Of a DNA stretch of 64,000 nucleotides, positions 16,355-19,032 are shown piece by piece. The stretch is from an uncultured Bacillota bacterium (GTDB lineage: Bacteria; Bacillota_I; Bacilli_A; RFN20; CAG-826). The notes beneath the pieces are model-generated. The model was not told where the DNA came from, ran no database searches, and was given only the letters and a program-made list of their open reading frames with translations. The stretch lies in the NCBI GenBank assembly GCA_949298195.1, contig CASFVT010000007.1, positions 116,477-180,476 of the forward strand, given 5' to 3'. Every line of letters starts with the position of its first letter. Positions within the stretch are counted from its first letter, which is position 1. A program made the position numbers and the translations under genes.

Positions 16355-16369
16355 CTTTTGATGATAGCA

Positions 16370-16457
16370 AAAAGAAACCACCGCGCATGGGTCGAAACCT
16401 TAAGGCTGCTCAGTTCCCCGCCTGACCTGGTTCGGAACCGACCCATCGCGATGGCTC
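16370..16457 (-). ncRNA. ffs: signal recognition particle RNA, small bacterial (4.5S) type
   Basis: About 88 nt. The conserved domain IV is recognisable as CCAGGTCAGG, a GGGGAA-containing tip, then AGCAGCC. It is flanked by GGTTCCGAA and a long closing helix: the segment GAGCCATCGCG-ATGGGTCG pairs with CGACCCATG-CGCGGTGGTTTC, with one bulge. A T-run follows the closing helix directly, so the helix itself may act as the terminator. The neighbour tadA matches the usual Firmicutes context. This RNA binds Ffh and targets membrane proteins. Confidence 0.9.
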
Positions 16458-16461
16458 GCCC

Positions 16462-16491
16462 ATTATAAGGGCTTTTCTACCCAAGCGTGAA
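16462..16491 (-). promoter_or_regulatory. SRP RNA promoter
   Basis: TATAAT (16462-16467) on the minus strand with a weak TTCACG -35 (16486-16491) at 18-nt spacing. Start falls near 16455. Confidence 0.75.
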
Positions 16492-16688
16492 AAAATCGCC
16501 ATCCAAATACATTCCTTCGCCCACAGGTCTCCGGTGTAGAAGGCCGGGGTACAAGCCGGGGCTTCTTGTCGTAAACAGAAGAGCGCAACGCTTCAAACAA
16601 CCATCCAGAAAGCGCAAACCCAATGTCGTCGAGGTATTTCAAATTAGTTACGGAAAACAGAAACTTCGCAAATTTATGCATTTTCTTG

Positions 16689-16717
16689 TTGACAAGGGTT
16701 GCTATGGACACGATAAT
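16689..16717 (+). promoter_or_regulatory. promoter of the large tandem-unit RNA
   Basis: TTGACA (16689-16694), exactly 17 nt, then GATAAT (16712-16717). One of the best promoters in the window. Between the SRP promoter and this site (16492-16688) I see no gene, only a short imperfect hairpin near 16545. Confidence 0.85.
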
Positions 16718-16762
16718 TCGCCTCACAACCCGGCGACGACCGCGACGAGTTGTGAGAATCGA

Positions 16763-16878
16763 CCCGAGAAATCGGGCACGGACCACCTGCTGGTGACTTG
16801 AAGAAAGGTGCCGCTCAAGGGCACGGGGATAAGCAGGGCCAACGCGATGGCAGAAGCGCGCTATGCGAGAGAACTCGC
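16763..16878 (+). repeat. tandem RNA unit 1
   Basis: Hairpin A CCGA-GAAA-TCGG; loop B CCUGC pairs with GCAGG downstream; hairpin C GTGC/GCAC; hairpin D CGCG/CGCG; hairpin E GCGAG-AGAA-CTCGC. Confidence 0.8.
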
Positions 16879-16949
16879 GACCTCCTGACGACGGTCGAAA
16901 TCGGGAAGGGGGCGAAGCGGATCGACATCTCAACCGTTTCGAAAGCGAT

Positions 16950-17064
16950 CTGCGGAAGCAGACACGGCCCAGCTTGCCGGGGACTTGAAGAAGGCATCGC
17001 CCAAGGATGCAGCGATAGGCAAGACGCCCATTCCGAAAAGAGTGGTAGGCCGGGAGAAACCCGG
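16950..17064 (+). repeat. tandem RNA unit 2
   Basis: Hairpin A CTGC-GGAA-GCAG; loop B CUUGCC pairs with GGCAAG, the most telling covariation because both sides differ from the other units; hairpin C GCATC/GATGC; hairpin D CCATTC/GAGTGG; hairpin E CCGGG-AGAAA-CCCGG. Confidence 0.8.
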
Positions 17065-17132
17065 AACCGAAGATGGCTAGGTCGAAGCCAAACGACGGTC
17101 GATGCGGGGCAACATCCGTATCGAGACAATCG

Positions 17133-17251
17133 GCCCGCGAACAACGGGCACGGCCCACCTGTGGGGAGTTGAAGAAGCTGCCGCTCAAGGGCAGGCACGG
17201 ATAAACAGGCCAGATCGCACTGGAGAAAGCGATAGGCAAGGAGAAGCCTTG
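17133..17251 (+). repeat. tandem RNA unit 3
   Basis: Hairpin A GCCCG/CGGGC with a 7-nt loop; loop B CCUGU pairs with ACAGG; hairpin C CTGCC/GGCAG; hairpin D TCGC/GCGA; hairpin E CAAGG-AGAAG-CCTTG. Confidence 0.8.
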
Positions 17252-17324
17252 TGAGTCCCGGTCCAAAGTTGCTGAGGGAAGCGGGAACCGATGGGAAAGC
17301 GGCCAAGGCACCATCGGACAAGCG

Positions 17325-17442
17325 GCTCGCATCGAGCGAGCACGGTCCCCTGCGGGAGACTCAAAGAAGGACACCGGCGTACCCCGGTGGACGTCTAAGC
17401 AGGCTGGCGCGGCAGTTCCGCGATAGGCAAGGAGAAACCTTG
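17325..17442 (+). repeat. tandem RNA unit 4
   Basis: Hairpin A GCTCG/CGAGC with a 7-nt loop; loop B CCUGC pairs with GCAGG; hairpin C ACCGG/CCGGT; hairpin D CGCGG/CCGCG; hairpin E CAAGG-AGAAA-CCTTG. The ACUUGAAGA string is altered to ACUCAAAGA. Confidence 0.8.
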
Positions 17443-17520
17443 TAGGCCCTTCGTCCGGAGGCCGCTCCGGAAAGGAAGCGCGAGAGGCGGCCCGCAATCT
17501 GAAGCCGCTTCCCAAATCGA

Positions 17521-17639
17521 CCGGTCGCAAGATCGGCACGGCCCACCTGTTGGGGACTTGAAGAGGCGTCGCCAATGGACGCAAAGGATAAACAGGCCAA
17601 CCGCGGGGGAAAGGCGCGGTAGGCGGGGAGAATCCCCGC
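17521..17639 (+). repeat. tandem RNA unit 5
   Basis: Hairpin A CCGGTC-GCAA-GATCGG; loop B CCUGU pairs with ACAGG; hairpin C CGTC/GACG; hairpin D CCGCG/CGCGG; hairpin E GCGGGG-AGAAT-CCCCGC (one T extends the loop). Followed by two 3' hairpins and the terminator. Confidence 0.8.
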
Positions 17640-17702
17640 AGCCCTCCTCCTGGGATTGCCAGGAAGGAGGGGAAACCGTCGTTTCTCCGGAAGCGACAGA
17701 GG

Positions 17703-17733
17703 AAAAGCCGCCTCGCAGGAGGCGGCTTTCTTC
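17703..17733. terminator. terminator shared by the large RNA and serS
   Basis: An 11-bp stem (AAAGCCGCCTC with GAGGCGGCTTT) and GCAG loop. On the plus strand TTTCTTC closes the large RNA; on the minus strand TTTT follows the serS operon. Confidence 0.9.
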
Positions 17734-17751: not shown

Positions 17752-19032
17752 TTATTTAAGAGGCGTGATTAGTTCGAGCCCGCCCATGAATGGACGGAGG
17801 GCTTCCGGAATGACGACCGACCCGTCTGGTTGTTGGTTTTCCTCGAGGAGGGCCGGGAAGACCCTCGAAGTGGCTAAGCCCGACCCATTGAGGGTGTGGC
17901 AGAAATGGATCTTCCCGTTTTCGTCGCGGTAACGAATCATCCCGCGACGGGCTTGGTAGTCGCGGGCATTGGAGACCGACGACACTTCTTTGTAGATGCC
18001 CATTGAGGGGATGTAGACCTCGATGTCGTAGGTACGGGCCATCGAATGCGAGCAATCCCCAGCCGCCAACTTGTCGATTTGATAGGCGAGTCCGAGTCCC
18101 TCGATGAGGCGTTGGGCTTTTTTGACTAGTTCGTCGAAGGCCACGTCGCTTTTGTCGTCTTCGGTGTATTGGACCATCTCGACCTTGTTGAATTGATAGC
18201 CCCTGATCATCCCCCGTTCCTCGGTCCGGTAACTTCCGGCCTCCTTCCGGTAGCAGGGGGTATAGGCAAAGAACTTCTTGGGAAGGTCTTTATGAGAGAG
18301 GATTTCGTTCCGGTAGACATTGACGAGGGCCGTCTCGGCGGTCGGGAGGATGAATTTGCGTGGTTCGCTTCCTTCTAGCCAGAACACCTCGTCCTTGAAT
18401 TTGGGGAACTGGCCGGCCGTATAGCCGCTTTCGTAATTGAGGATGTGCGGGGGGAGGATCATCTCGTAGCCGTCGGCGAGATGGGAGGAAACGAAATAGT
18501 TGATGAGGGCCCACTCCAGACGGGCCCCAAGGCCAGTGTAGATCCAGGTTCCGCTACCCGAAATCTTGGCTGCCCGCTTGTAATCGATAAGCCCAAGCGA
18601 TTCAGCCAATTCAACGTGGTCTTTCATTTTAGAACGGTCGAAAACGCGGGGCGTTCCCCATTTGTAGAACGGTTCGTTGTCTTCCTTTCCGCCGGCAGCG
18701 AGGTCCTCGTCGGGAAGGTTCGGAAGGACTTCGACGAGCGACTTGATCTCGTTTTCGACGGCCCTGAGCCTTTCTTCCTTGGCTTTGTTGGCTGCGCCGA
18801 GCGACTTGACTTCCTCGAATATAGATTTCACGTCCTCGCCGGCCTTCTTCTTGATGGGTACCAAGGAAGACAAGCGGTTTTGCTCGGCCTTCGATGCCTC
18901 GACTTCCTGAAGGAGGGTCCGTCTCTCTTTCAATAGGGAAAGGATCGGTGTGGGGTCGAATTCCCAATTCTTCCTCTTGAGGCGGGCTTTCACTTCCTCG
19001 GGTTTTTCTTCAATGTAACGGAGGTCAATCAT
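17752..19032 (-). CDS. serS: seryl-tRNA synthetase
   Basis: Class II synthetase charging tRNA-Ser. 426 residues, the usual length. An N-terminal helical arm (about 1-105) binds the long variable arm of tRNA-Ser. Motif 2 reads CYRKEAGSYRTEERGMIRGY (about 260-280), and motif 3 has NGSGLATSR near 380. AAAGGA lies upstream of the ATG. The start overlaps the glycosyltransferase stop as ATGA, so serS is the last gene of the yaaA-recF-gyrBA operon. Confidence 0.97.
   Translation of the reverse strand: MIDLRYIEEKPEEVKARLKRKNWEFDPTPILSLLKERRTLLQEVEASKAEQNRLSSLVPIKKKAGEDVKSIFEEVKSLGAANKAKEERLRAVENEIKSLVEVLPNLPDEDLAAGGKEDNEPFYKWGTPRVFDRSKMKDHVELAESLGLIDYKRAAKISGSGTWIYTGLGARLEWALINYFVSSHLADGYEMILPPHILNYESGYTAGQFPKFKDEVFWLEGSEPRKFILPTAETALVNVYRNEILSHKDLPKKFFAYTPCYRKEAGSYRTEERGMIRGYQFNKVEMVQYTEDDKSDVAFDELVKKAQRLIEGLGLAYQIDKLAAGDCSHSMARTYDIEVYIPSMGIYKEVSSVSNARDYQARRGMIRYRDENGKIHFCHTLNGSGLATSRVFPALLEENQQPDGSVVIPEALRPFMGGLELITPLK

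What the first reader, a model, noticed from the sequence alone, without database searches (positions are those of the whole stretch)
16722..17733. About 1-kb RNA made of five tandem structured units, no known family recognised
A near-perfect promoter (TTGACA-N17-GATAAT) and a strong terminator bracket about 1010 nt with no credible protein. Five units with anchors 186, 186, 192 and 196 nt apart share five hairpins and short invariant strings (CACGG, ACUUGAAGA, GAUAARCAGG, AGAA loop). Stem sequences differ but stay paired, which is strong evidence of selected RNA structure. Size and multi-domain form recall the large ornate RNAs (OLE, GOLLD, ROOL), but I do not recognise this one. It sits between SRP RNA and serS, near oriC.
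Basis: partly seen in the sequence, partly recalled or inferred. Interest (0 to 1): 0.95.

Follow-up and report, generated by a model that had tools for sequence, protein, structure and literature searches.

The report
Five-module knotted RNA without relatives
A bacterium related to uncultured Bacilli carries, between two housekeeping genes, about 1,000 bases built from five diverged copies of one module that matches no RNA family in the library searched; the copies are predicted to fold into knotted RNA units of one untranslated RNA, which would likely act as a platform that holds five copies of the same partner.

Summary
Window 16722-17733 has five diverged repeats (CACGG anchors 186, 186, 192 and 196 nt apart), a near-consensus promoter match upstream and an 11-bp hairpin with a short T run at the end. 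On a sequence-only alignment of the five cores, 13 pairs change on both sides and stay paired (shuffles 6.0; 0 of 500 as high; slid controls 2-3). I add a predicted pseudoknot: the hairpin-2 loop pairs with a downstream GCAGG-type string in all five units. Each unit has seven predicted hairpins plus this pseudoknot. No Rfam family matches. The long antisense ORF found no relative but itself. A covariance model finds the units only in this genome, not in 36 others of the genus or 223 others of the family. In the two closest serS loci, the serS-SRP gap is short and empty. Best reading, inferred: an untranslated RNA used as a five-site docking platform or sponge. CsrA and Hfq were not found. Transcription is untested. 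It belongs to no family searched; function open.

The parts
16689..16717 (+). sigma-70-type promoter match TTGACA-N17-GATAAT
   Evidence: 11 of 12 consensus matches; consensus only
16722..17733 (+). predicted untranslated RNA of five tandem units
   Evidence: transcription inferred
16722..16912 (+). unit 1: linker hairpin h7 (16722-16756), core with h1-h5 and pseudoknot (16757-16879), h6 (16881-16912)
   Evidence: (core 111.1 bits)
16913..17099 (+). unit 2; core 16943-17066; its last base overlaps the first base of unit 3 h7 as drawn
   Evidence: (115.8 bits)
17099..17286 (+). unit 3; core 17128-17253
   Evidence: (118.8 bits)
17288..17475 (+). unit 4, the most diverged; core 17320-17444
   Evidence: (88.2 bits)
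17474..17671 (+). unit 5; core 17515-17640; as drawn its h7 overlaps unit 4 h6 by two bases
   Evidence: (128.5 bits)
16786..16837 (+). predicted pseudoknot of unit 1: CCUGC 16786-16790 with GCAGG 16833-16837
16973..17023 (+). predicted pseudoknot of unit 2: CUUGC 16973-16977 with GCAAG 17019-17023
17158..17209 (+). predicted pseudoknot of unit 3: CCUGU 17158-17162 with ACAGG 17205-17209
17349..17403 (+). predicted pseudoknot of unit 4: CCUGC 17349-17353 with GCAGG 17399-17403
17546..17596 (+). predicted pseudoknot of unit 5: CCUGU 17546-17550 with ACAGG 17592-17596
17678..17697 (+). sixth h7-like hairpin that closes the array after unit 5
   Evidence: read from the sequence printed; also in the minimum-energy fold
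17704..17729 (+). terminator-like 11-bp hairpin followed by TTTCTTCG; it ends 22 bases before the end of serS, so it could serve both convergent genes
   Evidence: not listed by the terminator scans
16368..16460 (-). neighbour: small SRP RNA, divergent
   Evidence: 54.4 bits
17752..19032 (-). neighbour: serS, convergent

Best explanation
It is a stretch of five diverged repeats of one module whose base pairs covary, predicted to be transcribed from its own promoter as one untranslated, pseudoknotted RNA of about 1 kb, and it likely works as a five-site docking platform that gathers or sequesters five copies of the same partner. Shown: the five repeats, stems that change on both sides and stay paired, pseudoknot pairing kept in all five units with double changes at 2 of its 5 positions, no Rfam match, absence from the relatives searched. 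Inferred: transcription; that the partner (most likely a protein, possibly a small RNA) reads the shared joining strings (AAUCGR, CACGG, GACUUGAAGAAG, GGAUAA, AGGC, AGAA) while the stems only hold the shape; and that h7 hairpins space the modules like beads on a string. The locus appears to be a lineage-specific gain at the serS-SRP gap, where some other genomes carry other insertions.
For: Stems diverge but stay paired within each unit (13 pairs with changes on both sides, 0 of 500 shuffles as high; arm-swap test), as selection on one shared shape would give. Nested-stem columns are 56.7% identical between units, unpaired columns 63.9%, pseudoknot arms 72.0%, so stems change most; the difference is modest. 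All five units keep the same order of parts, so five equivalent modules are kept. serS is convergent and the array ends in a terminator-like hairpin, so a cis-acting leader is unlikely. No protein support on either strand.
Against: No transcript evidence. No partner is known, and no candidate partner gene lies beside it. CsrA and Hfq, two well-known partners of bacterial RNAs, were not found in this genome (MAG 96% complete, 7% contamination). Repetition of a module also suits RNA-RNA assembly or processing into five small RNAs. With no homolog outside this lineage, conservation of function over time cannot be shown. The pseudoknot's own arm-swap test is 4 of 120, and single units fold only 0.9-2.0 sd below shuffles.
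Confidence: 0.42

Rival explanations
1. The five modules pack against each other, or against other copies, into an RNA-only particle, as OLE, ROOL and GOLLD do by homo-oligomerisation, here with the repeated subunits joined in one strand.
For: Size class and ornateness; five equivalent domains in one chain; full-length fold 6.0 sd below shuffles. OLE, ROOL and GOLLD form 2-, 8- and 14-mers without protein (PMC12286853; abstract and section 8 read).
Against: Inter-unit covariation was not tested, and the loops are not obviously complementary between units (by eye only). raiA, also a large structured RNA, is a monomer.
Confidence: 0.22
2. The transcript is a precursor that is cut into five small RNAs of about 190 nt, or an RNA antitoxin array like ToxI, where each pseudoknotted repeat binds one toxin.
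For: Tandem pseudoknotted repeats behind one promoter are the form of ToxIN antitoxins, with 3 to 5.6 repeats in E. coli clusters (PMC8860590, passages seen). Linker hairpins lie between units.
Against: The ToxI repeat is about 35 nt and the toxin ORF follows it behind a terminator; here units are about 190 nt and the next gene, serS, is convergent. No ToxN match in this genome, but that search rang in no control genome, so it is weak. No Hfq found. Eight window proteins gave no PADLOC defence match.
Confidence: 0.14
3. It is a passenger or decayed structured element of a mobile element inserted at the serS-SRP gap, without a function for this host.
For: In 45 of the 80 serS loci measured, the SRP core starts 48-222 nt after serS in 30, 954-3760 nt in 6 and was not found in 9; five of the 6 long gaps were looked at and hold ORFs. 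No homologs in the genus genomes searched.
Against: Paired stems in all five units argue against decay. No mobile-element gene was recognised in the window's gap. No match in phage records; plasmid matches are 26-42 nt with E 0.3-1; no confirmed relative in viral contigs, though the 120 loci were not scanned with the model.
Confidence: 0.12
4. The minus strand encodes a real 358-373 aa protein and the repeats are protein repeats.
For: The frame 16463-17584 is open, and a 358-aa version of it stands in the protein database (P0001).
Against: Only itself among the 7995 candidates scored, at E up to 10; no Pfam match; the last unit spacing, 196, is not a multiple of 3; changes are compensatory by base pair; the + strand is poor in T (12.2%), which thins out minus-strand stops.
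Confidence: 0.02

Closest known systems
Large ornate bacterial RNAs (OLE, ROOL, GOLLD)
   Same: Large, intricately folded RNA with covarying stems (PMC12286853).
   Different: No Rfam match; built from five copies of one module in one strand, which the parts of that paper I read do not describe for them; found in one lineage only.
Type III antitoxin RNA arrays (ToxI)
   Same: Tandem repeats, each with a pseudoknot, behind one promoter.
   Different: Units about five times longer with seven predicted hairpins each, strongly diverged; no toxin gene downstream.
CsrB/CsrC-type sponges (recalled)
   Same: One untranslated RNA with many equivalent binding sites, if the platform reading is right.
   Different: No CsrA found in this genome (control rang in E. 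coli and B. subtilis); modules are complex, not simple GGA hairpins.
raiA motif RNA
   Same: Structured noncoding RNA of Bacillota (abstract of PMC11706538 in the listing).
   Different: No Rfam match here; raiA is a monomer in cryo-EM and, as recalled, a single domain.

Membership tests
Any Rfam 15 family (4227 models) | Score at or above the family's gathering cut-off | tested here: not met
   only SRP RNA (16368-16460, minus strand) in the window; others (E up to 5; E up to 10) give nothing above a cut-off on the RNA, highest 21.2 bits against 55
OLE / ROOL / GOLLD ornate RNAs | Match to their Rfam models (that the library holds them is recalled) | tested here: not met
OLE / ROOL / GOLLD ornate RNAs | Homo-oligomeric RNA-only assembly | not testable with these tools
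   needs mass photometry or cryo-EM
Type III toxin-antitoxin RNA | Tandem array of short pseudoknotted repeats | tested here: not met
   tandem with predicted pseudoknots, but units are about 190 nt; the ToxI repeat is about 35 nt
Type III toxin-antitoxin RNA | Toxin ORF downstream on the same strand, behind a terminator | tested here: not met
   next gene is serS on the opposite strand
Type III toxin-antitoxin RNA | ToxN-like toxin in the genome | tested here: inconclusive
   none, but no control genome rang
Csr sponge RNA | CsrA in the same genome | tested here: not met
   0 matches; control rang in 3 of 14 genomes; MAG is 96% complete
Hfq-dependent sRNA | Hfq in the same genome | tested here: not met
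   0 matches; control rang in 5 of 14 genomes
Tandem riboswitch | Lies upstream of a gene on the same strand | tested here: not met
   RNA ends in a terminator-like hairpin and serS is convergent

The most novel reading that the evidence does not exclude
The founding member of a new class: a modular RNA machine in which five copies of a roughly 125-nt pseudoknotted subunit, strung on hairpin linkers, fold into one five-part pseudo-symmetric particle or five-site scaffold, an RNA counterpart of a tandem-repeat protein, present so far in a single bacterial lineage.
Probability: 0.3. Interest if true: 0.92.

Novelty: new variant of a known kind. Interest (0 to 1): 0.74.

Why it matters
Here one strand repeats one complex module five times while most stem positions are rewritten and kept paired. 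That gives covariation inside a single genome, so a structure can be supported without homologs, and it poses a clear question: why five? OLE, ROOL and GOLLD reach high symmetry by assembling separate identical strands; this RNA, if expressed, may do it in one strand. A single module is small enough for structural work and for partner pull-downs. It also shows that such RNAs can be confined to one rare lineage, so curated RNA libraries may miss many.

Tried and rejected
Homologs by DNA: blastn of the 1012 nt over 61 genomes (own plus 60 relatives; only own), phage records (none), plasmids (18 records, stretches of 26-42 nt with E 0.3-1, rejected as chance). Homologs by covariance model R1: 97 relatives, 395 drawn from the class, 392 drawn from the phylum, 224 of the family, 279 of the order, 39 relatives with laxer filters. 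These sets overlap, each includes G000, and all but one search used stricter filters that can lose weak matches. Only G000 has tandem units.

Weak single matches, all told: 7 other genomes at E up to 1; the G016 match (18.4 bits) lies in a 535-aa frame that looks like rny (recalled); all 8 loci were rescanned and only L208 showed a second match, 7.7 bits. G398 at 25.2 bits, E 3.6e-4 (about 0.14 expected over 395 genomes), overlaps a 99-aa ORF and has no second unit within about 1.5 kb; it is the strongest result against 'no homologs' and I judge it chance. G249 at 20.1 bits was rescanned (no second unit), its coding context not examined; 13 other genomes at E up to 0.3, no more than such E-values predict for 279; five of them were among the loci, three more were rescanned without a second unit, five were not looked at; 10 other genomes at E up to 1, of which G005 (18.3 bits) and others were not inspected, and a sixth match in G000 itself (C12, 13.9 bits, E 0.34), not inspected.

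Syntenic site: R1 over all 80 serS loci gave nothing above 13.2 bits. nhmmer of the units over them gave one match at E 4.1.

Viral contigs: four pattern scans. The 9 loci gave at most 11.0 bits; the 17 gave nothing at E up to 1; one search found none.

Other: the first alignment misplaced hairpin 3; in A2 unit 4 is still misaligned there and at the pseudoknot, which lowers the counts. In one search all 194 of 194 cells are paired, but I chose and trimmed the arms by eye for pairing, so that number is by construction; 30 of 40 positions there have changes on both sides. In one search unit 4 was located wrongly; one search replaces it. One search places the 3' arm of unit 4 h1 at 17333-17337, one search uses the arm next to CACGG; both pair. 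A partner for the AAUCGR string and kissing loops between units were looked for by eye only, without result. Papers: searches were seen as listings, one search found no paper; only PMC12286853 (abstract, outline, section 8) and PMC8860590 (12 passages) were opened. None of the listings showed an RNA of this build; that is no proof that none is in print.

Full report
What is there. The region 16722-17733 was read directly. A promoter match TTGACA-N17-GATAAT lies at 16689-16717. Five CACGG anchors lie at 16777, 16963, 17149, 17341 and 17537 (CACGG also occurs at 16822 and 17196, outside the anchor position). A hairpin of 11 perfect pairs lies at 17704-17729, followed by TTTCTTCG. The array stands between the divergent SRP RNA (16368-16460, minus strand) and the convergent serS (17752-19032).

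Anatomy of a unit. From 5' to 3': linker hairpin h7; AAUCGR-like string; h1; CACGG; h2; GACUUGAAGAAG-like string; h3; GGAUAA-like string; h4; AGGC; h5 with an AGAA loop; h6. The loop of h2 pairs with the string just before h4: CCUGC/GCAGG in units 1 and 4, CUUGC/GCAAG in unit 2, CCUGU/ACAGG in units 3 and 5. This predicted pseudoknot was not in the finding. After unit 5 a sixth linker-like hairpin (17678-17697) precedes the terminator-like hairpin, so five cores are flanked by six linker hairpins.

Is it more than chance? The test least open to my choices is: a structure of 28 pairs laid on the MAFFT alignment A2, which knows nothing of structure. 84.7% of cells pair (shuffles 72.8%, sd 1.8), 13 pairs have changes on both sides (6.0, sd 1.5), covariation score 0.450 (0.217), each with 0 of 500 shuffles as high; one measure, further pair types, is not exceptional (108 of 500). 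Slid controls give 32-44% paired and 2-3 such pairs. The structure was drawn from these same sequences, which favours it over slid versions. The second test swaps 3' arms between units: the own arrangement is the only one of 120 to reach its score for h7, h1 and h3; 2 of 120 reach it for h5, 4 for the pseudoknot, 6 to 8 for h4, 2 to 9 for h6; h2 is uninformative (8, 60 and 96 of 120 at flanks 0, 2, 3). Combined Fisher p is 1.4e-7, 2.2e-6 and 3.9e-6. The whole 1012 nt folds to -443.7 kcal/mol against -397.8 (sd 7.7) for 40 shuffles. Single units are less clear: z -0.9 to -2.0 on the + strand, +0.5 to -2.4 on the opposite strand, with 39 control pieces of the window at -0.6 (sd 1.2).

Not a protein. 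The antisense frame 16463-17584 (373 aa) found only itself at E up to 10 among the 7995 candidates scored. It and six other frames (168 aa minus; four plus and one minus) have no Pfam match. The + strand has 12.2% T, which thins out stops on the minus strand.

Not a known RNA. Rfam gave no match on the RNA at gathering thresholds or at E up to 5 with flanks. At E up to 10 on the stretch alone there were 10 matches, all below their cut-offs: 8 overlap the terminator-like hairpin and two lie in unit 5, one of them running 5 nt past it.

Distribution. There is one locus in the own genome by DNA. A covariance model of the core finds tandem units in no second genome: 97, 395, 392, 224, 279 and 39 genomes, overlapping sets that each include G000; they hold 36 others of the genus and 223 others of the family. 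The strongest outside match is one unit at 25.2 bits in G398, overlapping an ORF and without a second unit. I measured the syntenic gap in 45 of the 80 serS loci: the SRP core begins 48-222 nt after serS in 30, 954-3760 nt in 6, and was not found in 9, some of which have little sequence downstream. Of the 6 long gaps, five were looked at (L023, L025, L027, L034, L040; not L029) and hold ORFs whose longest is 153 to 539 aa. So the gap accepts insertions. The two closest serS loci (87% identity, L002 and L003) lack the RNA.

Probably not an assembly artefact. The antisense ORF (P0001) and TadA (P0002) each form a cluster with one sequence on two contigs, the longest 675,871 bases; the window's own contig has 180,476. 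The next TadA is 67% identical (8000 candidates scored). So in that database this lineage stands on two contigs, and the equal numbers suggest that both carry the RNA; whether the two assemblies come from independent samples is not known.

How it likely works. Shown: five equivalent modules under pairing constraint, and no gene downstream on the same strand that it could control in cis. Inferred: expression, and a multivalent platform or sponge for one repeated partner. CsrA and Hfq were not found, so the partner would be something else. RNA-only assembly as in OLE, ROOL and GOLLD (PMC12286853; abstract, outline and section 8 read) and antitoxin arrays as in ToxIN (PMC8860590; passages) are the nearest working models; the second fails on unit size and on the missing toxin gene.

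Verdict. A strongly structured five-unit locus that is predicted to make an RNA and belongs to no family searched. I file it as a new variant of the known kind 'large structured bacterial RNA', the new point being construction from five copies of one module.

Noticed in passing
L040 5415-5451 and 6102-6139 (+): Two copies of a short element in the serS-SRP gap of a relative: promoter-like TTGACG and TTTAATAT, hairpin GACCGG-CATAATTGTGG-...-CGCAGTGACGGTC, then ATTTTT. No Rfam match at E up to 1 there; by that pattern not in the other 79 serS loci, and its two halves not in the window. Could be a tiny duplicated RNA.
   Followed up: partly
serS-SRP gap of L023, L025, L027, L034, L040: The gap between serS and SRP RNA is an insertion site: different genomes carry different ORFs there (peptidase-like and helix-turn-helix-like by eye, no family search), the window carries the RNA.
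   Followed up: partly
window 16463-17584 (-): A probably spurious 358-373 aa protein is predicted antisense to the RNA and stands in a protein database (P0001).
   Followed up: yes
window 16368-16381: The longest tadA frame (GTG start at 16381) overlaps the 3' end of the SRP RNA; the true start is probably further in.
   Followed up: no
window 16481-16688: About 200 nt of sequence between the SRP and RNA promoters, single copy in the genome, with a GAAGGCCGGGGTACAAGCCGGGGCTTC hairpin; nothing assigned.
   Followed up: no
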